Shown in pieces: positions 1,474-13,970 of a stretch of DNA of 14,082 nucleotides. A program made the position numbers and the translations under genes. Below the pieces are notes generated by a model that was not told where the DNA came from, did not search any database, and worked only from the letters and a program-made list of their open reading frames with translations. The DNA comes from Nanobdellota archaeon (lineage in GTDB: Archaea > Nanobdellota > Nanobdellia > Woesearchaeales > JAGLGH01). The stretch covers positions 1 through 14,082 of the forward strand of contig JAGLGH010000221.1 of NCBI GenBank assembly GCA_023144115.1. Reading direction: 5' to 3'. Position 1 is the stretch's first letter, and every line of letters starts with the position of its first letter.

Positions 1474-2187
1474 ATGCCTTATGACGAAGATGAAAATCAG
1501 TATGAGATTATGCCTATTCATGAGATAAATGAAATGAAAAAGGAAATAGAATCTCTAAAAAAACAGTATTTGAATAAAGGAGTATCCTCTTCTATCGATA
1601 CACTTAATAATAACATAAAAGATCTTCTGGCTATATTTCGGGAAGCTACAAGCGAGATGCGTGAAGAACAAAAGGTAGTTGATGCATCAAAGAAGAGAAT
1701 CGATGAAGTAAGTTTAAATGTTAATGAGCTTTTTGACCAGAATGCCAAGATAGCAGAAGCTATCATAGCTGTGCATGATCTTAGCAGAGAAATGAAAGAA
1801 ATGATGGATGAAATGGTAAAGAAAAGCGCAGAGCCTGAGCTGGCAACACCTGTGCCAAATATACCTCCTATCCCTACAAATGTGCCCCCAATTCCTGCAA
1901 ATATACCTCCTCTTCCTGCAGTTGCTGCAGAGCCTGAAATGCCTATGGCTCCTCCTATAGTTCCAAGACCTCCTCAGCCACCGCAAGGATTAGGCAGACC
2001 TCTGCCAGGCACAATACCTCCACCTAGGATGCCACCCCCTCCTCAGCCACCACCTCAGAGACCTATGCCAGGTTCAGAGGATATTGGCTTTCTTCCGCCA
2101 ACACCCCCTCCAAGAAGAGCAAGGGCTCCTCCACCACCATTAGGTATTCCTCTTCCAAAGAAAAAGAAAAAAGGACTTTTTGTATAA
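1474..2187 (+). CDS. Coiled-coil protein with long proline-rich tail and basic C-terminus
   Basis: I do not recognise this 237-aa protein as a member of a named family. Residues 15-117 are highly charged and helical with heptad-like spacing, so probably a coiled coil. Residues 121-230 hold 46 prolines. They begin with three tandem heptapeptides of the form N-[IV]-P-P-[IL]-P-[TA] (129-149), followed by PPP and PPPP runs. The protein ends in KKKKKGLFV. There is no signal peptide or membrane segment, so it is probably cytoplasmic. Such tails usually form extended PPII helices that bind SH3-, WW- or EVH1-like partners, and PPP runs slow ribosomes and need aIF5A; both points are family knowledge, not shown here. 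The start is supported by GGTGAT just upstream. It forms an operon with the next gene, 3 nt away, so a complex or shared scaffold is plausible. Confidence 0.8.
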   Translation: MPYDEDENQYEIMPIHEINEMKKEIESLKKQYLNKGVSSSIDTLNNNIKDLLAIFREATSEMREEQKVVDASKKRIDEVSLNVNELFDQNAKIAEAIIAVHDLSREMKEMMDEMVKKSAEPELATPVPNIPPIPTNVPPIPANIPPLPAVAAEPEMPMAPPIVPRPPQPPQGLGRPLPGTIPPPRMPPPPQPPPQRPMPGSEDIGFLPPTPPPRRARAPPPPLGIPLPKKKKKGLFV

Positions 2188-4833: not shown

Positions 4834-6648
4834 ATGACTTTAACTAAGGCTGATATTGTTTTTGAGGTTTCTTTTGAAGTCTGCAACAAGGTAGGCGGGA
4901 TATATACTGTTGTGACATCAAAGGCAGCAATACTGGAACAATATTATCATCAGGGATATTTTCTTATAGGTCCTTATTTTGCTCAGCAGGCATTGGGTGA
5001 ATTTGAGGAAAAGCTTCCTGAAAAAAATCTGAAAAAAGCATTTGACGAACTTAAGCAAGAGGAAGGCATAATCTGCCATTATGGCAAATGGCTGATAAAG
5101 GGAGAGCCAGATGTCATACTTATTGATTTTCAGAATTATATGCATAAGGCAAATGATATAAAAAGAGAACTGTGGGAGCAATTCAAAGTGGATTCACTCC
5201 GTTCAGGATATGATTTTGATGAGCCTGTTGTCTGGAGTTATGTTACAGGTAAGCTTATTGAGAAGATTGCAAAGTATGAGAAAAAGAAGAGATGTGTTGC
5301 TCATTTTCATGAATGGCTTAGCGGTGCAGGGCTTCTATATCTCAAATCACGCAAAGTTCCCATAGCGACGGTTTTCCAGACCCATGCGACAATTCTTGGG
5401 CGGACTCTGGCATCAAGCGATGTGGACATATATGCTCTGGATGAAAAAGGCGAATGCTGCACAATGGAAAATCTTGATCCGATAGAATCAGCTTATCAGT
5501 ATAATCTGGAATCAAAATATCTCCTCGAACGCAGAAGTGCAGAGCTTTCTGATGTTTTCACAACAGTAAGCGAGATTACCAGTATGGAAGCAGAATTCCT
5601 GCTTGGTAAAAAACCTGAGATTCTTCTTCCTAATGGTCTTGATATTGATAAATTCCCCACTTTTGAAGAGCTTTCAATAAAGCATAAGATGCATAGGGAT
5701 AAAATAAGATCATTTTGCCTTTCTTATTTCTTTCCTAATTATAGTTTTGATCTTAAACAAAGCCTTTTTTATTTTCTTGCAGGAAGATATGAATTCCATG
5801 ATAAAGGCATTGACATATATATCAGGGCCCTGGGAAAACTGAATCAGAAGCTTAAAGCCAAAAAGAACGGCAAGACAATCATAGCATTTATTTGGGTACC
5901 TGCAGGAATAAGGGGAATAAAGCAGGATATACTTGAAAACCAGGTTCATTACAGAGATATCAATGACAGCCTGAATGAAAATATAGAAAATATCAAAAGA
6001 GATATAGGCTATGCTATATTTTCTGGCAAGGATCTGAATAGGACTCCTATTTTTGAGAATGAATTCATAATGGAACTTAAACGGAAGCTGATGAAGTTTA
6101 AGAAAAAAGGCCTTCCCCCTGTATCAACCCATAATCTCAATGATGAAAATGATATTATATTAAGGTCTCTGAGAGAAGCTGGACTTAATAACAATGAAGA
6201 CGATAAAGTCAAGGTCATATTCTATCCTATATATCTTAGCGGAGCTGATGGTTTGCTTGATCTGAATTATTATGAATCCATGCAAGGATCGCATCTGGGA
6301 ATATTTCCCTCCTACTATGAGCCTTGGGGTTATACCCCTCTTGAAGCAGGAGCATTGGGTGTGTCATCTGTGACAACAGATCTTGCAGGTTTTGGGAGGT
6401 ATATCCAGAAATATTCTGAAAGAGAGAAGAATAGGGGCATATTTGTCTTGAGAAGATTTGGAGTGCCTGATGAGGATGTTGTCAGGGATCTGTCTCATAT
6501 AATGTTCAAGTTTGCCAACCTTACGCATAATAATAGGGTAGTTAATAAGATTCAGGCGAGAAAACTTGCAAAACTTGCTGATTGGAGAATAATGGGCAAG
6601 AATTATGTCCTTGCGCATAACATGGCTATAGAAAAAGTATTTAAATGA
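4834..6648 (+). CDS. Glycogen synthase of the eukaryotic-type GT3 family
   Basis: A 604-aa cytoplasmic glycosyltransferase that adds glucosyl units from a nucleotide sugar to a growing alpha-1,4-glucan. The match is to the animal/fungal GT3 type rather than bacterial GlgA (GT5). Matching landmarks are EVCNKVGGIYTVV (15-27; sugar-nucleotide loop), AHFHEWLSGAGLLYL (156-170), TVFQTHATILGR (179-190), AGRYEFHDKGIDIYI (316-330) and FPSYYEPWGYTPLEAG (491-506). The last holds the E-x7-E pair (Glu496, Glu504). It is shorter than human GYS (about 737 aa): the phosphorylated N- and C-terminal tails are absent. In the region equivalent to the glucose-6-phosphate-sensing arginine cluster (about 566-580), only Arg568 and Arg576 remain, so that allosteric control is probably lacking. 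The next gene encodes a possible sensor-regulator with its own promoter. Confidence 0.93.
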   Translation: MTLTKADIVFEVSFEVCNKVGGIYTVVTSKAAILEQYYHQGYFLIGPYFAQQALGEFEEKLPEKNLKKAFDELKQEEGIICHYGKWLIKGEPDVILIDFQNYMHKANDIKRELWEQFKVDSLRSGYDFDEPVVWSYVTGKLIEKIAKYEKKKRCVAHFHEWLSGAGLLYLKSRKVPIATVFQTHATILGRTLASSDVDIYALDEKGECCTMENLDPIESAYQYNLESKYLLERRSAELSDVFTTVSEITSMEAEFLLGKKPEILLPNGLDIDKFPTFEELSIKHKMHRDKIRSFCLSYFFPNYSFDLKQSLFYFLAGRYEFHDKGIDIYIRALGKLNQKLKAKKNGKTIIAFIWVPAGIRGIKQDILENQVHYRDINDSLNENIENIKRDIGYAIFSGKDLNRTPIFENEFIMELKRKLMKFKKKGLPPVSTHNLNDENDIILRSLREAGLNNNEDDKVKVIFYPIYLSGADGLLDLNYYESMQGSHLGIFPSYYEPWGYTPLEAGALGVSSVTTDLAGFGRYIQKYSEREKNRGIFVLRRFGVPDEDVVRDLSHIMFKFANLTHNNRVVNKIQARKLAKLADWRIMGKNYVLAHNMAIEKVFK

Positions 6649-6676: not shown

Positions 6677-6699
6677 CTTGATTGATTTTTGATTATTTG

Positions 6700-7341
6700 A
6701 TGAAAAGTCATAGTTATAGCATAATTGCTCCATTAAGCAAAGATATTGACAGCTTATTCTTTGGGATTAGAGAATATGCTCCTGAAATAATGGTCCTACT
6801 TGCTGATGATAGCACAAAATCTTTCGCAGGCATAGCAAGGCAGAGTATAGAGGGATTAGGTGTGCCTGTAACTGTGCTGCATATCCCTTCATGCAATGGT
6901 GTGAGGGAAGTGAGCAAAGTCATATATAAGATAGCTGCAAAGTATGGCAGAGATAATCTGATAATAAATTCTGTTTCAGGCAATTCTCTTGCAAATTCTA
7001 TAATCCTATCTGCTGCTTTTATCAATGGGATAAGTGCTTTTACAATCAGGGATGGTGAAATAATTAATCTTCCTGTCATGAAATATCCATACTATCGTTT
7101 TATCGGTGAAAAAAAACTTAAAATACTCCAACTATTGAATAAGGAGAAATGCTGCAACTCCCTTGAAGAACTTGGCAAAAAGATTGGCATGAGTCTTCCT
7201 CTTATTTCTTATCATATCAATGGAAATAGGGTGTCAAAAGGGCTGAAGGCCTTAGACCTGGTTGATATAGATGAAAAAAAAGGAAAAGTCAAAGTGATGC
7301 TGAGCAGGTTCGGCAAGCAGCTTATTGCACCATTGGAATAA
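6700..7341 (+). CDS. Transcription regulator: CARF-like Rossmann domain plus winged helix-turn-helix
   Basis: A 213-aa predicted cytoplasmic DNA-binding sensor. Residues 1-130 alternate beta strands and helices: SYSIIAPL, EIMVLLAD, PVTVLHIP, DNLIINSVSGNSLANSIIL, then ISAFTIRDGEIINLP. The strand followed by N-x-x-S-G-N-S-x-x-x-S and a helix sits where CARF proteins (Csa3 and the haloarchaeal HFX_2341/DUF6293 type) carry their ligand-binding N-x-x-G-G-T-like motif. Residues 136-213 form a winged helix: KKLKILQLLN, then LEELGKKIGMSLPLISYHING (recognition helix) and a beta wing ending KVKVMLSRFGKQL. It lies 51 nt after glycogen synthase under its own promoter. The ligand is unknown; cyclic oligoadenylate or another nucleotide is family-based inference. 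An ArsR-like wHTH with an unrelated Rossmann sensor is the alternative. Confidence 0.7.
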   Translation: MKSHSYSIIAPLSKDIDSLFFGIREYAPEIMVLLADDSTKSFAGIARQSIEGLGVPVTVLHIPSCNGVREVSKVIYKIAAKYGRDNLIINSVSGNSLANSIILSAAFINGISAFTIRDGEIINLPVMKYPYYRFIGEKKLKILQLLNKEKCCNSLEELGKKIGMSLPLISYHINGNRVSKGLKALDLVDIDEKKGKVKVMLSRFGKQLIAPLE

Positions 7342-7403
7342 TGACTCGAAGATGCTTGTGCTCAGTTAAATCTGACTTTCTACTTACGGTATTTGGAAAC
7401 ATT

Positions 7404-7411
7404 TTTATAAT
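7404..7411 (+). promoter_or_regulatory. TATA box of the queuosine-salvage gene
   Basis: TTTATAAT is centred 25-26 nt before the ATG at 7433; a leaderless transcript is predicted. Confidence 0.65.
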
Positions 7412-7432: not shown

Positions 7433-8389
7433 ATGAATAAAATAGTAGAATCTGCTAAATTTGTTGTTGACAATTCTCAACATATAAAAATAAACCTCGA
7501 TAAAGTTGATGAGTTTTGCAATTATTTTGACCATCAGCATATTAAACATTGGTTCAATGAATCGCCGTTCAATATAAGAAAGTTAAAAAATAAAGGTAGA
7601 TTAAATTTTTTATTAGTATTTAATGCCATTAGCTTTTGTTATTGGGGAGACCCAAAATGGAAGATTAATTATAATTCTGAGGAGATTGATGGAGCATATG
7701 GCATGATTGCTGCTCTTGGGAGAGCAATTGAAAATGGATATCCTATTTTGGATGCAAAATATCTTTCTGAAATTAGCAAAGAAGATTTTAATAAGGTCTT
7801 GGAAGGAAATGTGAAAATTCCTTTATTTGAAGAAAGGCTTAAGATAATAAGAACAGTTGGAAATACTTTAATGAAAAAATTTGAGGGAGATTTTACAAAT
7901 CTTGTTGCAAAAGCTAATGGCGATTCAAATAAATTATTGAGTTTATTCATTGAAAACTTCCCCTCATTTAAAGATGAATCAATTTACAAAGGAAAACATG
8001 TTTATTTTTATAAACGAGTCCAGCTTTTAATTTCTGATATCTTTCAAGCTTTTGATGGGCAGGGATTTGGCAAATTAAAAAACATTCAAGAATTAACTGC
8101 TTGCGCAGATTACAAATTGCCTTTTGTTTTAAGAAGACTTGGAATTTTTTCTTATTCAGATAATTTAGCTGAAAAGATTGATAACCAAATCCAGATTGAC
8201 AAAGATAGTGAAGAAGAGATAGAAATAAGGGCGAATACAATTTGGGTTGTTGAGATTATAAAACAAAAATTAAAGAATAAAATTCCTCATATAGATTCTA
8301 TTCATGTTAATGACCATTTATGGCTAATTGGACAGGAAAAATTAAAAGATGATAAACCATATCATTTAACCAGGACAATTTCTTATTAG
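7433..8389 (+). CDS. qng1: Queuosine-nucleotide N-glycosidase, queuine salvage (DUF2419 family)
   Basis: A 318-aa cytoplasmic enzyme that releases queuine base from queuosine 5'-phosphate or nucleoside. The length is close to human QNG1 (C9orf64, 341 aa). Conserved blocks run along the whole protein: ISFCYWGDPKW (66-76), GAYGMIAALGRAIENGYPI (87-105), IPLFEERLKIIRTVG (129-143), ENFPSF (174-179), VYFYKRVQLLISDIF (190-204; Lys194), CADYKLPFVLRRLG (224-237; Asp226 in the conserved A-D-Y-x-L-P), EIEIRANTIWVVEII (262-276), DHLWLIG (294-300) and the end PYHLTRTISY. None of the conserved blocks appears broken. It is monocistronic, with a leaderless start. Archaea normally place archaeosine at G15 and are not known for queuosine, so this points to scavenging or lateral transfer. 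Codon use looks more A+T rich than in the glycogen synthase. Confidence 0.93.
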   Translation: MNKIVESAKFVVDNSQHIKINLDKVDEFCNYFDHQHIKHWFNESPFNIRKLKNKGRLNFLLVFNAISFCYWGDPKWKINYNSEEIDGAYGMIAALGRAIENGYPILDAKYLSEISKEDFNKVLEGNVKIPLFEERLKIIRTVGNTLMKKFEGDFTNLVAKANGDSNKLLSLFIENFPSFKDESIYKGKHVYFYKRVQLLISDIFQAFDGQGFGKLKNIQELTACADYKLPFVLRRLGIFSYSDNLAEKIDNQIQIDKDSEEEIEIRANTIWVVEIIKQKLKNKIPHIDSIHVNDHLWLIGQEKLKDDKPYHLTRTISY

Positions 8390-8419: not shown

Positions 8420-9241
8420 CTATGTATCAGCTATCTTGTAAAAAGCCACCCTGTTAAAAGACATTAGTAAGTACAGCCCTATTATTGTTATGCCCTGATA
8501 CACTGCAGTGAACCCAGGATAATATGCATAATACAGCGCTTCTGTTCTGAACAGCGTATATTTCAGGATAGCAGTGATTGCCATTGAGATTATCAAATAT
8601 GCTGCAATGGCTATTATTGATGACACATAGATGCTTATGTATTTCCTGATGCCTGGAAAAGTCATTGCTATTGCTTTCCTTACTGGCTGTTTCCTGCCTT
8701 TATAGAAAAGCGACTGGCAGAGATTCATAAAAGGATAATAGAAAAACACTACTGGCAGCAATATTAGAATCACTAATAATGATGCATATTGTGTTTCTAT
8801 CCCCAGGCTTATTATAAATACAAGTATCATAAAGGCAATTAAAGGGATGCCTATTATCCTTGTGTTCAGCCATGTAAATCTCTTTAACCGGTTGAGGCTG
8901 AACTTCTGCTTTTTGGACATTGACATGATAAGATCAAGTATGCAGTATTTGACAAATGAATATGCTGCTAGTACTATAAAAAAATATATTAATATATATA
9001 TGAGGACAAAAAATATCACTGAGAATATGGACGAAAGTCCTGCTACAAAATCCATGCCACTGTTTGGAAAAATAAAATCTGCAATTGCATTGATAATGAT
9101 GAAAGCAAGTATCATCACAATATCAAACAGCAAGATGAAAAAGAATTGCTTCTTGCTTTTCTTTATTGTTCTCACTGTCTTTGTGAATAACAGTTCCTGG
9201 CTTAATTTTGAGATTCTTGAAATTAATTTAGTTCTTTTCAT
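8420..9241 (-). CDS. Six-TM membrane protein B of the lgt operon
   Basis: A 273-aa polytopic membrane protein of unknown function. Hydrophobic segments lie near residues 33-57, 71-98, 128-147, 153-172, 203-225 and 246-268, with a basic N-terminal ~30 residues likely cytoplasmic. It resembles its upstream neighbour (9228-10064) in length, six-TM layout and an equivalent loop: FYKGRKQPVRKAI here against FVKGKKGFANLVR there. The two are probably old tandem duplicates. It starts inside the neighbour: GGAGG sits 6 nt before the ATG within the last codons of that gene, and the coding overlap is 14 nt, so translation is coupled. It is the last gene of the operon and is convergent with qng1, with only 30 nt between the stops. 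No transporter signature is seen. Confidence 0.8.
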   Translation of the reverse strand: MKRTKLISRISKLSQELLFTKTVRTIKKSKKQFFFILLFDIVMILAFIIINAIADFIFPNSGMDFVAGLSSIFSVIFFVLIYILIYFFIVLAAYSFVKYCILDLIMSMSKKQKFSLNRLKRFTWLNTRIIGIPLIAFMILVFIISLGIETQYASLLVILILLPVVFFYYPFMNLCQSLFYKGRKQPVRKAIAMTFPGIRKYISIYVSSIIAIAAYLIISMAITAILKYTLFRTEALYYAYYPGFTAVYQGITIIGLYLLMSFNRVAFYKIADT

Positions 9242-10065: not shown

Positions 10066-10749
10066 TCAGTTCATTGCTCCTAAAATCTGTTCTGTTATCT
10101 TTTCAGGGTCAAGCTGTTTTTCAATAGCTTCTTCTAGTGTATCATAATCCTGTGAACCTATAATCATATCTCCATTTATTATGAATATTGGTGTTGCTCT
10201 TATGTTATTTGCCTGAGCTTCCTGCATATCTGCCATAACTTTTTTTGTTTCTTCTCCTGATTGTATGCATGAATCAAATTCTGCAATATCCAGCCTCAGC
10301 GATTCTGCAAGCGATATGAATGCTTCATAATCTAATTTTCCAGATTCAAACAAAACATCATGATATTCTATAAATCTTCCCTGATTGCGAGCGCATTCTG
10401 ATGCCACAGCTGCATCAAACGCATTAGGATGCAGGTTATTCTGGGGCAGATGCTTGAATACAAAATTTATTGTTTCACCATATCTTTCAAGGATTTGCTT
10501 TAGTTCTGGATAAGTCTGCTTGCTGTACACACATCCAAAATCACTGAATTCAATAAGGTCAATTGGTGCGCCTGGATTAGTGCCTGTTGAAGTATTGATG
10601 AATGCCTGCTGTTTTGGGATATCCTCTGGAGTCAGGCCTGTTTCAGGAACAGGAAAAAAGAAATCTATCCTGATAGAAAATAGGATCAGTAATACCATAA
10701 TCAGTACTAGTGATATGTTAATTGTGAGGGATTTTGTTTTTTCTTCCAT
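10066..10749 (-). CDS. Membrane-anchored DsbA-like thioredoxin-fold protein with CXXS site
   Basis: A 227-aa extracytoplasmic thioredoxin-fold protein of the DsbA / Thioredoxin_4 type. Residues 9-31 form a hydrophobic signal anchor. The domain (about 60-215) has LIEFSDFGCVYSKQTYPEL (65-83), FVFKHLPQ (97-104), SECARNQGRFIEYHDVLF (117-134) and the cis-Pro motif RATPIFIING (184-193). The active site is Cys73-Val-Tyr-Ser76: the resolving cysteine of the usual CPYC/CPFC is serine (codon AGC). Cys119 and Cys161 are also present; Cys119 is in the motif common to this family. A CXXS site cannot work as a simple dithiol oxidase, but CXXS proteins can act as isomerases, thiol carriers or redox-inactive chaperones. 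Its start lies 32 nt inside the end of lgt, and it is followed 1 nt later by a membrane-protein gene. Confidence 0.88.
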   Translation of the reverse strand: MEEKTKSLTINISLVLIMVLLILFSIRIDFFFPVPETGLTPEDIPKQQAFINTSTGTNPGAPIDLIEFSDFGCVYSKQTYPELKQILERYGETINFVFKHLPQNNLHPNAFDAAVASECARNQGRFIEYHDVLFESGKLDYEAFISLAESLRLDIAEFDSCIQSGEETKKVMADMQEAQANNIRATPIFIINGDMIIGSQDYDTLEEAIEKQLDPEKITEQILGAMN

Positions 10750-11488
10750 TTTTAATTTTTATTGCAATAAATATAATAGATAATATGAATGCCACAATCA
10801 GTCCATATTGTGTTGCTGTAAGTCCAAAATATGTCTGGTCAATCCTTAGCAGATCTATCAAGAACCTTCCGCTTGCATAAATTATAGCATAAGTGAGGAA
10901 AAGAAGACCTCTTGTTTTAACATATATCTCCTTTTTTCTTATGTACATAAGGACTCCGAACAGGCAAAAGAGAAAGAGCGCAGAATATATGCTTGTTGAA
11001 TGCACAAGCTCTCCCTGGTATAATACTCCCCAGGGCATTGTTGTTGCCTTCCCTATGTGTCCGCCATCAGCTATATAACATCCAATCCTTCCTATTGCAT
11101 GACCTATAACAAAGCCAGGTGCTATTATGTCTGCATATTCCCAGATATTCAGCCCTTTTATCCTTGTGTATATTATCGCGCAGGAAATTGCAAGAGCAAA
11201 TCCTCCGAAGAATGCCAGACCCCCTTCCCAGATAGCAAATATTTTCCAAAGATTATGGGAATAATCTCCCCAGTGAAGAATAATATGAAACATCCTAGAA
11301 CCTATTATTCCTGCAAGCAATAATATGAAAATCATATTATAGACATGATCTGGATTCGCGTTTTTTTGTTTTGCTTCTTTTATAGCAATGAATGTCGCTA
11401 CAAGGAATCCAATTGCTGCTATCAATCCCCATGTCATAATAGTCAGCTTCCAGATGTGAATCTCAGGATAATAGATGTATGGTAACAT
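10718..11488 (-). CDS. lgt: Prolipoprotein diacylglyceryl transferase
   Basis: A 256-aa polytopic membrane enzyme that moves a diglyceryl-lipid group from a phospholipid to the lipobox cysteine of preprolipoproteins. Hallmarks are IWEGGLAFFGGF (86-97; bacterial enzymes have GGL-x-(F/Y)-(H/Y)-GG), the Lgt signature IGHAIGRIGCYIADGGHIG (128-146; Arg134 matches the essential Arg of GRxGN/C), PWGVLY (152-157), and the late GRFLIDLLRIDQ (207-218) with GLTATQYGLI (222-231). Length is near the bacterial norm (about 260-290). Gly-rich helices fit about seven TM segments. The ATG is 27 nt from a TATA box, so it starts a leaderless operon transcript. In an archaeon the donor would have to be an ether lipid (archaetidylglycerol); this is inference. 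The lipoprotein at 3066-3494 is a candidate substrate. Confidence 0.93.
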   Translation of the reverse strand: MLPYIYYPEIHIWKLTIMTWGLIAAIGFLVATFIAIKEAKQKNANPDHVYNMIFILLLAGIIGSRMFHIILHWGDYSHNLWKIFAIWEGGLAFFGGFALAISCAIIYTRIKGLNIWEYADIIAPGFVIGHAIGRIGCYIADGGHIGKATTMPWGVLYQGELVHSTSIYSALFLFCLFGVLMYIRKKEIYVKTRGLLFLTYAIIYASGRFLIDLLRIDQTYFGLTATQYGLIVAFILSIIFIAIKIKNGRKNKIPHN

Positions 11489-12212: not shown

Positions 12213-12275
12213 TTTATATTAGCTCCCTCATTACCTAAGAGTAACAAACACCCTGGGTGTTTCAAAAAAGAGGTG
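12213..12275 (+). promoter_or_regulatory. Promoter, 5' dyad and Shine-Dalgarno of the large unknown gene
   Basis: The TATA box TTTATATT (12213-12220) predicts initiation near 12243. AAACACCC (12246-12253) and GGGTGTTT (12255-12262) are perfect 8-nt inverted arms separated by one T, placed at about +3 to +19 of the RNA. GAGGTG (12270-12275) lies 5 nt before the ATG at 12281. The dyad could be an operator or an mRNA 5' hairpin (7 bp with a CTG loop). Confidence 0.65.
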
Positions 12276-12280
12276 CGAGA

Positions 12281-13792
12281 ATGTTCAAAAAATTGAAAGC
12301 AAAAGTATCAATCGAAGAATTTGTTAAAGAATATTTCCCAGATTCTAAAAATCATAATTGGGACGATTCAAAAGTTAGGAAAGGGTTCAAACAAAAACTT
12401 AACAAACATGTTAAATCAAATGATTATGATACACTTGATTTTATCCTCAAAGAAGGCGCTGAATTAGTTAGATTGGATAGTTCAATAGGTCACAATTTTA
12501 TTCATTGCAGCGAAGATCTTCTATCTGTGGATAGAGATTCGCTAAAATATGTAGTTAAAAGAACAAAGCAGTATTTAACAGATGGACATCGAGTTGAGGT
12601 TAAAGATTTGTTAGAAATATATTCTAATTCATTAGATCAAAATGATTTTGAATTAACAATGTCTGAAGCAACAGAACTTTCAAATAAATTAAATATGTCT
12701 CTTATGCAACAGTCTACAAACTTCTCACCAACATTTGCAAGGTTATATCAAGACAATAAAAAAAGATTGGGAAATAAGAATTTTGATAGTTTTATTTCAA
12801 TAGTAAACAACTTATCTGATGTGGATTCTGAAACTGCGAAAGACCTATTTGGTTATAATCCATTCTCATCGTCTTATCCAATACTTAATCTTGATAAATT
12901 ACCTCCTAAGATTGTAAGTAAGTTTTTTGATATTATTGAATATGCAGAAAAAAACAAAGATTCTGGGAATCATGGTTCAGTTATAGAAGCCAGAGGAGAT
13001 TTCATCAAAACATGTTCTTCATCAGTTAAAACAATATACAATCAACTTGGAGAAGAATTAACCTTTAAAGTATTGGATAGTGTTGAACAAATTGCCAATA
13101 AGAGCATTGAATCTGCAGAGAGCGCTTTAACTGGTTTAAGTTATACAATGAACAAAAAAGATTCCTCAAATAATTTGAATTACAATCAAATACAAGATGG
13201 GTTAAGTATTCTAGAATCTGTAGAACAAGGTCCATTTAATATGAAGTTCTCTTCAAAAATTTATTCAATGGTAAAAAATAACCAAAAAGATGAACTGCTT
13301 GATAAAGTTTCAAATGCAGAATCAGTTGCAAAAATTATTGATTGCAATACTGGAAGTGTTTTTGAAACATATTGTTCTTTATGCGAAAAATATTCTTTAG
13401 ATGTTGCGCAAAAAGTAATTGAGACTGTAAAAGAACAAGCAAAAACAAGTTCTAAAATCGCAAAAAGCTTATTATATAATGCTTCAGGGATATTATATGG
13501 TAGTTCAGGAATAATGGATTATAATCTTGGACTAACTACTTTTATAGACTATAATCAAGGGATAACTATTTTTAATAATTTAGCTGAAGGGATAAGAGAT
13601 TGCGCTAAAGAACATGAACGAGTAGGGCTTTTAATGAGTTATGATGGACAATTCGTTGCAAGGGATTTTGGTTCAGAAGGCGTAAAAGAACTGGCTAATG
13701 CACTTTGCATAATAGAAAAATATAGTAAAGGTAAGGACTACTTTATAGCTAAAATGGGAGCAAGAGCAGCTGGGAAAGAGGGAAAATATTAA
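12281..13792 (+). CDS. Large helical repeat-like protein of unknown function
   Basis: A 503-aa protein I do not recognise. The ATG at 12281 is preferred over an in-frame GTG at 12257 because GAGGTG sits 5 nt before it and the GTG falls inside the 5' dyad. It is almost wholly alpha-helical, hydrophilic, and lacks a signal peptide or membrane segment. Residues 241-288 and 361-406 look like copies of one unit: F-x3-C near the start, then Y, L, a F/AxKV-(L/I)-(D/E)-x-V core, A-x(3)-S, and an A-x-x-(G/S)-L-x-(Y/S) end. A weaker copy may lie at 149-190. This suggests a HEAT- or armadillo-like solenoid. Near the C-terminus DYNLGLTTF (413-421) and DYNQGITIF (423-431) are a tandem duplication. It is probably a binding scaffold rather than an enzyme; this is inference. 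Confidence 0.75.
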   Translation: MFKKLKAKVSIEEFVKEYFPDSKNHNWDDSKVRKGFKQKLNKHVKSNDYDTLDFILKEGAELVRLDSSIGHNFIHCSEDLLSVDRDSLKYVVKRTKQYLTDGHRVEVKDLLEIYSNSLDQNDFELTMSEATELSNKLNMSLMQQSTNFSPTFARLYQDNKKRLGNKNFDSFISIVNNLSDVDSETAKDLFGYNPFSSSYPILNLDKLPPKIVSKFFDIIEYAEKNKDSGNHGSVIEARGDFIKTCSSSVKTIYNQLGEELTFKVLDSVEQIANKSIESAESALTGLSYTMNKKDSSNNLNYNQIQDGLSILESVEQGPFNMKFSSKIYSMVKNNQKDELLDKVSNAESVAKIIDCNTGSVFETYCSLCEKYSLDVAQKVIETVKEQAKTSSKIAKSLLYNASGILYGSSGIMDYNLGLTTFIDYNQGITIFNNLAEGIRDCAKEHERVGLLMSYDGQFVARDFGSEGVKELANALCIIEKYSKGKDYFIAKMGARAAGKEGKY

Positions 13793-13881: not shown

Positions 13882-13970
13882 AGCCTCCGGCGAGAGTTGA
13901 ACTCGCGACCTCAGCCTTTTTGTTGTTATTAACATACCAAGGCTGCGCTATACCACTAAGCCACGGAGGC
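13882..13970 (-). tRNA. tRNA-Thr(GGU) with intron
   Basis: Folded on the minus strand: acceptor stem GCCTCCG / CGGAGGC; D arm GCT...AGC with a GG in the loop; anticodon stem CAGCC / GGCTG; 7-nt loop T-T-G-G-T-A-A after splicing, so the anticodon is GGU (reads ACC and ACU, threonine); five-base variable loop AGGTC; T arm GCGAG-TTCAACT-CTCGC. The discriminator is T73, as in many archaeal tRNA-Thr, and no CCA is encoded. The mature length is 72 nt. A TATA box at 14013-14006 implies a 5' leader of about 12 nt, and T-runs follow the 3' end. Confidence 0.95.
13918..13934 (-). other. 17-nt archaeal tRNA intron at position 37/38
   Basis: The loop between the anticodon-stem strands is 24 nt instead of 7, so 17 nt must be removed after A37. 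The precursor can form a relaxed bulge-helix-bulge: a short TTG/CAA helix, GTA and AAA bulges on opposite strands, and a terminal TGTT/AACA stem with an AAT loop. This is the shape cut by archaeal tRNA splicing endonuclease. Shifting the intron by one base (36/37) gives the same mature RNA. Confidence 0.85.

What the first reader, a model, noticed from the sequence alone, without database searches (positions are those of the whole stretch)
7433..8389. Complete queuosine-salvage enzyme (Qng1) in an archaeon
The protein carries the full set of DUF2419/Qng1 motifs (FCYW, ADYxLP, FYKRVQ, EIRxxxxW, DHLW and the C-terminal HxxRxxxY-like end). Established knowledge: Q is made by bacteria and salvaged by bacteria and eukaryotes, while archaea make archaeosine at G15 through a different transglycosylase. 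An intact salvage enzyme under an archaeal leaderless promoter suggests either that this archaeon modifies its tRNA wobble base with scavenged queuine, or that it takes Q nucleotides for another use such as 7-deazaguanine recycling from a host or neighbour.
Basis: partly seen in the sequence, partly recalled or inferred. Interest (0 to 1): 0.8.

Follow-up and report, generated by a model that had tools for sequence, protein, structure and literature searches.

The report
Queuosine-salvage enzyme in a DPANN-type archaeon
A small archaeon carries an intact, probably borrowed copy of the enzyme that frees the tRNA base queuine from used nucleotides, but its relatives suggest that the enzyme may serve nucleotide recycling as much as tRNA modification.

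Summary
Window 7433-8389 (+) encodes a full-length Qng1: Pfam Q_salvage E 5.9e-79; model TM 0.94 to the solved Sphaerobacter enzyme; K199 and D231, mutated in solved entries, are kept as K194 and D226. The contig is archaeal: congener G106 has the flanking genes in order without Qng1, so it is a single-gene gain or clean loss. Tree neighbours mix archaea and Patescibacteria.

The genome's only transglycosylase (TGT) is bacterial-type; QueA, QueH, QueC and QPTR gave no match (genome 87% complete). But this TGT has a preQ1-like pocket motif (GGLAFGE), G106 keeps a like TGT without Qng1, and among 237 genomes of the phylum Qng1 does not go with TGT (12 of 24 against 93 of 213), whereas QueA (24 of 24) and QPTR (29 of 39) do. 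Queuine salvage looks likelier in relatives: a Qng1-TGT pair in G066, and QPTR near short-loop TGT in 13 genomes.

Unexpected: a separate Qng1-like clade (13 genomes) keeps the catalytic core but lacks W71 and other canonical residues; in two genomes it adjoins pentose-phosphate genes, suggesting nucleotide catabolism.

The parts
7433..8389 (+). Qng1 (queuosine-5'-monophosphate N-glycosylase family, PF10343), 318 aa; catalytic K194 and D226 kept
7402..7411 (+). TATA-like element TTTTTATAAT, spaced for a leaderless transcript starting at or near the ATG (inferred)
   Evidence: no transcript data
6682..7341 (+). Winged-helix regulator weakly like Csa3, directly upstream; a homologue stands at the same place in congener G106, which lacks Qng1, so it is not tied to Qng1
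   Evidence: (all matches below the curated cut-offs)
8420..9241 (-). Protein of membrane type (by its sequence; no Pfam match), 30 bp after Qng1; in G106 its homologue follows the regulator with no Qng1 between

Best explanation
A Qng1 with intact catalytic residues, most likely gained as a single gene by a Nanoarchaeota/Woesearchaeota-like archaeon from a pool shared with Patescibacteria. It hydrolyses queuosine-5'-monophosphate (and perhaps queuosine) from degraded tRNA, probably of a host or neighbour, to queuine plus ribose-5-phosphate (or ribose). Family, fold, catalytic residues and genomic setting are shown here; the activity and the direction of transfer are inferred. The fate of the products is not settled. 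I give about 0.45 to queuine being used by the genome's single bacterial-type TGT to make Q34, and about 0.40 to the enzyme serving mainly nucleotide scavenging (ribose-5-phosphate recovery or removal of an unusable nucleotide). The stated confidence is for the enzyme and its acquisition.
For: PF10343 over the whole domain; Sphaerobacter Qng1 E 2e-68; fold TM 0.94 to the queuosine complex 7u1o. PDB 7ulc and 7u5a are mutants D231N and K199C (titles, letters); the window has D and K there. Of 19 columns that are identical in the two solved enzymes and clearly commoner in canonical than in divergent archaeal members, the window keeps 14, W71, D202, W271 and E274 among them. G106, same genus: glycogen synthase, regulator, two membrane-type genes, DsbA and Lgt in the same order, with 285 bp between the ends of the regulator and membrane-gene matches and no trace of Qng1 there. 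Tree of 46 rows: archaeal canonical Qng1 needs 9 label changes and bacterial 8; the window's starred clade (100/98) holds archaea together with proteins named Peregrini-, Nomura- and Uhrbacteria. One bacterial-type TGT in the genome. Relative G066 has Qng1 and, 17 bp from its match on the same strand, a TGT with the shortened GGSLGKS loop; no QueA, QPTR or QueH match there.
Against: For the tRNA fate: own TGT pocket GGLAFGE; no Qng1-TGT co-occurrence (12 of 24 against 93 of 213, Fisher p 0.67; 16 of 37 with the added genomes); TGT 86% identical in G106 without Qng1. Against acquisition: a clean loss in G106 would look the same, and some bacterial labels may be misbinned MAGs. No activity data for any archaeal member. 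The window departs from the two solved enzymes at 5 of the 19 columns (89, 139, 165, 231, 312), and which of them touch the base was not mapped.
Confidence: 0.75

Rival explanations
1. The enzyme works in nucleotide scavenging: it splits Q-5'-MP (or a broader set of nucleoside monophosphates) so that ribose-5-phosphate enters central metabolism, and the TGT uses another base.
For: Qng1 is independent of TGT in the phylum although QueA and QPTR are not; 20 of 37 Qng1 genomes have no TGT match at all and one more (G329) only one below the cut-off; in G069 a divergent Qng1-like gene lies among transketolase N and C, RpiB and Rpe, and in G215 between homologues of that RpiB and Rpe; own TGT pocket motif is preQ1-like.
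Against: The pentose-phosphate neighbours belong to a separate clade with changed residues, in two genomes of one family, and not to the window's type; G066 shows a Qng1-TGT pair; no pentose-phosphate family was matched by the window's own genes.
Confidence: 0.4
2. Neutral passenger: a transferred gene in transit that confers little and will be lost, as its patchy distribution suggests.
For: Over the cut-off in 24 of 237 genomes; absent from G106, the only other genome of the genus in that draw; broken or partial copies in G170, G033 and G318.
Against: Catalytic residues intact, a TATA-like element of its own, and 118 of the 120 listed homologues (one of them the window's own near copy) have W, K and D at 71, 194 and 226.
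Confidence: 0.1
3. Bacterial contig misbinned into an archaeal genome.
For: Some close relatives carry bacterial (candidate-phyla) names.
Against: Gene order shared with G106; archaeal TATA spacing at 6 of 14 starts; contamination 0.22%; Qng1 also in a single-contig 1.30 Mb archaeal genome.
Confidence: 0.01

Closest known systems
Sphaerobacter thermophilus Qng1 (PDB 7u07, 7u1o, 7u91, 7ulc, 7u5a; organism recalled)
   Same: Whole fold (TM 0.94), 37% identity in the structural alignment, catalytic K and D, FC[FY]W, ADYK and EIR motifs
   Different: Archaeal host; F231 and V196 where the solved enzymes have Q and A; activity untested
Human QNG1/DUF2419 (PDB 7ugk)
   Same: Same fold (TM 0.90) and motifs
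   Different: The human enzyme serves a QTRT1/QTRT2 TGT that takes queuine (recalled); the window genome has one bacterial-type TGT with a bulky pocket residue
Queuosine synthesis genes in DPANN (Castelle 2021, PMC8204110, passages)
   Same: Bacterial queuosine genes, Tgt among them, in DPANN archaea
   Different: That work reports QueA, QueH and Tgt; the word 'salvage' does not occur in its main text; the window genome has no QueA or QueH match
Direct queuine salvage by TGT (Chlamydia type, PMC11570991, passages)
   Same: TGT without QueA or QueH; relatives here with the short GG[SA]LG loop fit it
   Different: The window's TGT has a preQ1-like motif, as in Bartonella; no QPTR match

Membership tests
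Qng1 / Q_salvage (PF10343) | Profile match over the whole domain above the cut-off | tested here: met
   266 bits against 25, positions 7-285 of 285
Qng1 / Q_salvage (PF10343) | Catalytic Lys and Asp (K199, D231 of the solved bacterial enzyme) | tested here: met
   K194 and D226
Qng1 / Q_salvage (PF10343) | Same fold as solved Qng1 | tested here: met
   TM 0.94, 1.8 A to 7u1o
Qng1 / Q_salvage (PF10343) | Placed among canonical Qng1 by phylogeny, outside the divergent clade | tested here: met
   the divergent clade (100/100) excludes the window. The solved bacterial and human enzymes lie on the other side of the midpoint root, which is for drawing only
Qng1 / Q_salvage (PF10343) | Hydrolysis of queuosine-5'-monophosphate | not testable with these tools
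   Needs an assay
Queuine salvage to tRNA (Qng1 + TGT that takes queuine) | A TGT of bacterial or eukaryotic type in the genome | tested here: met
   One, 452.7 bits, over the TIGR00430 cut-off
Queuine salvage to tRNA (Qng1 + TGT that takes queuine) | Queuine-type pocket GG[LS][AS]G | tested here: not met
   GGLAFGE; motif from PMC11570991
Queuine salvage to tRNA (Qng1 + TGT that takes queuine) | Precursor transporter QPTR (PF02592) | tested here: not met
   No match in own genome, 87% complete; QueT/QrtT and other transporters not searched
Queuine salvage to tRNA (Qng1 + TGT that takes queuine) | Qng1 and TGT travel together in the phylum | tested here: not met
   12 of 24 Qng1 genomes against 93 of 213 others; 4 of 13 added Qng1 genomes
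Archaeosine pathway | ArcTGT | tested here: not met
   PF01702 finds one TGT and it is over the bacterial-type cut-off; both models ring in all 14 control genomes, four archaea among them. ArcS not searched
De novo or preQ1 route to Q | QueC, QueA, QueH | tested here: not met
   No match in own genome, 87% complete; QueD, QueE, QueF, QueG not searched

The most novel reading that the evidence does not exclude
Archaea of this phylum use the Qng1 fold in two ways. Canonical members, such as the window's and the Qng1-TGT pair of G066, let archaea salvage queuine for Q34. A separate clade with changed residues around the conserved catalytic core is a new nucleoside-5'-monophosphate N-glycosylase that feeds ribose-5-phosphate to transketolase, RpiB and Rpe, so that scavenged RNA becomes a carbon source in host-dependent cells; the window's gene may do the same with Q-5'-MP.
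Probability: 0.35. Interest if true: 0.7.

Novelty: new member of a known kind. Interest (0 to 1): 0.5.

Why it matters
It widens a salvage enzyme known from bacteria and eukaryotes to archaea that are thought to live off other cells, and gives a testable case of archaea taking a tRNA micronutrient from neighbours. The wider survey suggests that the sampled genomes of this archaeal order have the bacterial-type TGT or none, with no archaeosine-type TGT that I could read among them, and that a Qng1-like clade may have turned to nucleotide catabolism, which would be a new activity for the fold.

Tried and rejected
Idea: the canonical (W71) type goes with TGT and the divergent type does not. In the first set it looked strong (11 of 14 against 1 of 9; G069 counted in both because it has one of each; G033 and G170 assigned from partial or split sequence; G008 and G032 left out). 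I wrote the prediction down and tested it on the 13 further Qng1 genomes: 2 of 6 canonical (two of these six already known, one with and one without TGT) and 2 of 4 divergent have TGT over the cut-off. G307 and G318 were not typed and have none. The prediction failed; pooled (without G329) 13 of 20 against 3 of 13, Fisher p 0.03, post hoc. I do not rely on it.

Misbinning: made very unlikely by synteny with G106. Remnant of Qng1 in the G106 gap: best frame score 31 against a shuffled mean of 32, none. Mobile-element signs: only short imperfect repeats around the gene. Window genes beside Qng1 in other Qng1 loci: no match beyond the own locus, but several of those loci reach only about 1.5 kb to each side. 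Sigma-70-like promoters: 10 found, 9.7 expected by chance, uninformative.

Short-loop TGT as queuine-type: GGSLG is one residue shorter than GGLAVGE and resembles, but does not match letter for letter, the published GG[LS][AS]G; the reading leans on 0 of 15 with QueA (against 16 of 72 long-loop, Fisher p 0.06) and 13 of 15 with QPTR (against 14 of 72, p 1e-6).

Neighbour families of Qng1-like genes were picked by eye as looking like nucleotide enzymes, without a control set; only the PPP genes of G069/G215 and the regulator come from a systematic comparison.

Papers: Zallot 2014, Yuan 2019 and Hung 2023 are not held, so a mention of archaeal Qng1 in them cannot be excluded.

Full report
What is there. 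The ORF at 7433-8389 (+) starts with ATG and gives 318 residues. Pfam PF10343 (Q_salvage) covers it at E 5.9e-79, to the last profile position; NCBIfam has no match. By sequence the only solved relatives found are Qng1/DUF2419 chains, E 2e-68 to 4e-49. An AlphaFold model from an 18-sequence alignment (pLDDT 93.5) lies at TM 0.94 and 1.8 A from the queuosine complex 7u1o, and at TM 0.90 from the human enzyme. The solved mutants D231N and K199C (titles, letters) point to the residues that matter; the window has D226 and K194 there. Of the 120 listed homologues (one is the window's own near copy) 118 have W, K and D at window positions 71, 194 and 226. The database search found 1320 relatives, 120 of them listed; three listed names are archaeal (an archaeon, a Nanoarchaeota archaeon, a Candidatus Diapherotrites archaeon), each called 'queuosine salvage family protein'.

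Setting. The window is a contig of a 1.72 Mb genome in 408 contigs, 86.9% complete, 0.22% contaminated. The taxon is not told. In same-genus genome G106 the genes run glycogen synthase, winged-helix regulator, two membrane-type proteins, DsbA, Lgt in the window's order, but Qng1 is missing: 285 bp lie between the ends of the regulator and membrane-gene matches, with no remnant. Thus Qng1 was gained by the window's line or lost cleanly in G106. The tree of 46 Qng1 proteins mixes archaea and bacteria (archaeal canonical rows need 9 label changes, bacterial rows 8); the window lies in a starred clade with archaea and with proteins named Peregrini-, Nomura- and Uhrbacteria, candidate phyla by my knowledge. 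Transfer is the likelier reading, with the caveat that some bacterial labels could be binning errors. Before the start stands a TATA-like TTTTTATAAT at 7402-7411; TTTWTA occurs at -33 to -20 in 6 of 14 chosen gene starts and at 1.9% of plus-strand positions, which fits leaderless archaeal transcription.

Pathway in the genome. PF01702 finds one TGT, P0122, 376 aa; it passes the cut-off of the queuosine-type model TIGR00430. Its best solved relatives are named queuine tRNA-ribosyltransferase (best E 5e-99), then QTRT1 (1.9e-81); the archaeosine enzyme is far (4e-25). No match was found in the own genome for QueA, QPTR, QueC or QueH; a 13% gap in the genome remains. QueD, QueE, QueF, QueG, QueT and ArcS were not searched.

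Survey. The same 237 genomes of the phylum were searched with five families. Over the cut-off: Qng1 24, TIGR00430 TGT 105, QueA 24, QPTR 39. QueC passes its low cut-off in 184, but only 13 genomes have a match of 100 bits or more; the rest I read as other ATP-pyrophosphatases. TIGR00430 rings in all 14 control genomes, over the cut-off in 10 (which ten is not told, presumably the bacteria), so an archaeosine TGT would show as a weak match; in the 237 I read only G099, G126 and G146, all outside the window's order, as of that type. Of QueA genomes 24 of 24 have TGT (p 6e-10), of QPTR genomes 29 of 39 (p 4e-5), of Qng1 genomes 12 of 24 (p 0.67). A 371-genome draw added 13 Qng1 genomes, 4 of which have TGT over the cut-off, making 16 of 37. 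Qng1 therefore does not follow TGT here, although the method detects such links for two other genes. QueH was found in 19 of the 24 QueA genomes and in none of the other 23 of the 47 searched; of the first 24 Qng1 genomes only G155 and G170 have QueA and QueH.

TGT pocket. TGTs that salvage queuine typically contain GG[LS][AS]G, and in a model of Bartonella TGT the Val of its GGLAVG comes within 1 A of the cis-diol of queuine; that TGT prefers preQ1 but can process queuine at elevated concentration (PMC11570991, passages). The window has GGLAFGE, and Val (LDHV) where the three printed TGT chains have Cys. Of 104 of the 105 TGTs classed, 15 have a shortened GG[SA]LG loop: 0 with QueA, 13 with QPTR, which in all 13 lies on the same contig within 1.6 kb by the coordinates; 72 have the long loop with a residue such as I, L, V or F (window type): 16 with QueA, 14 with QPTR; 17 are others (8 with QueA, 2 with QPTR). 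I read the first group as queuine importers and inserters. G066 belongs to it, has no QPTR match, and carries Qng1 on the same strand with the two matches 17 bp apart, Qng1 first: the clearest archaeal case of Qng1-fed queuine salvage, a single genome. The window's TGT belongs to the long-loop group, which argues against, but does not exclude, queuine as its base.

A second Qng1 clade. Thirteen Qng1-like proteins form one clade at 100/100 support. Compared with 18 canonical archaeal ones they keep R135, G143, D181, K194, Q197, D226, Y227 and H311 in all 13, and E264 and R266 in 12 (the other has a gap there), but none has W71, L199, D202, V232, W271 or V273, and one of 13 has E274. That these shape the base pocket is inferred; ligand contacts were not mapped. 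A database search with one of them finds 34 proteins: 21 lack W71, one does not cover it, 12 have it; the only organism name among the first kind is Woesearchaeota. A model of it (pLDDT 88.8) has the Qng1 fold (TM 0.83). In G069 its gene lies among transketolase N and C, RpiB, a small unknown gene and Rpe; in G215 between homologues of that RpiB and Rpe. Neither genome has a TGT match. They share a family and the proteins are 51% identical, so this is close to one observation, not many; of 8 genomes of that family, 4 gave a match to this protein, and only these two matches are of the divergent kind by identity (51% or more; the others 31-33%). Elsewhere single genes resembling nucleotide enzymes lie nearby: a cytidine/deoxycytidylate deaminase (G283) and a 5'-nucleotidase (G377; below the cut-off in G303) near the divergent type, a MazG gene (G254) near the canonical type; these were picked by eye. 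My reading is that this clade hydrolyses a nucleoside monophosphate and passes on ribose-5-phosphate.

Regulator. In six genomes (G050, G069, G078, G155, G170, G300) a canonical Qng1 lies near a regulator with two AsnC/Lrp-type winged helices, on the opposite strand (family by comparison; Pfam on three of the six). In G069 a gene similar to a methyltransferase lies between. Three of these genomes (G050, G069, G300) have no TGT match.

Known or new. Queuosine-synthesis genes in DPANN are published (PMC8204110, passages). In the listings, and in passages of PMC11130926, PMC4425180, PMC4810244, PMC12313893 and PMC9508795, I saw no report of Qng1 in archaea; the founding DUF2419 paper and two others are not held, and a source database already names archaeal members. 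I file the window's gene as a new member of a known family, of moderate interest; the divergent clade would be a new variant.

Noticed in passing
L067:2200-7208 (G069), L070:4941-7121 (G215): Divergent Qng1-like genes beside RpiB and Rpe (and split transketolase in G069), in genomes without a TGT match.
   Followed up: partly
L085:6727-8858 (G066): Qng1 and a short-loop TGT in tandem in an archaeal genome; a TruD gene lies nearby.
   Followed up: partly
13 genomes, coordinates: QPTR transporter genes within 1.6 kb of short-loop TGT in archaea: an apparent queuine import module.
   Followed up: partly
L073:5043-5981, L066:3955-4893, L074:4791-5813, L075:7233-8171, L077:3636-4574, L200:6548-7483: Double AsnC/Lrp-type regulator near canonical Qng1, opposite strand, in six genomes; ligand unknown.
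   Followed up: partly
L006 (G004) and L197 (G254): The catalytic Asp is Glu in two canonical archaeal Qng1 proteins (AEYK).
   Followed up: no
window 10066-11488 (-): Lgt (prolipoprotein diacylglyceryl transferase, 4.2e-50) and a DsbA-like protein in an archaeon, also in congener G106.
   Followed up: no
window 4834-6648 (+): Glycogen synthase of the Pfam Glycogen_syn family, 6.8e-164; relatives in 4 of 6 genomes searched (G106, G004, G078, G086).
   Followed up: partly
window 1474-2187 (+): Protein with a proline-rich C-terminal half; no Pfam match over its cut-off.
   Followed up: no
window 12257-13792 (+): 511-aa protein without any Pfam match.
   Followed up: no
window 13882-13970 (-): ARAGORN reports a tRNA with an unclear two-base anticodon, probably spurious.
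   Followed up: no
54 of 105 TGT-bearing genomes: Bacterial-type TGT without QueA, QPTR or Qng1 matches: the base it inserts is unknown.
   Followed up: no
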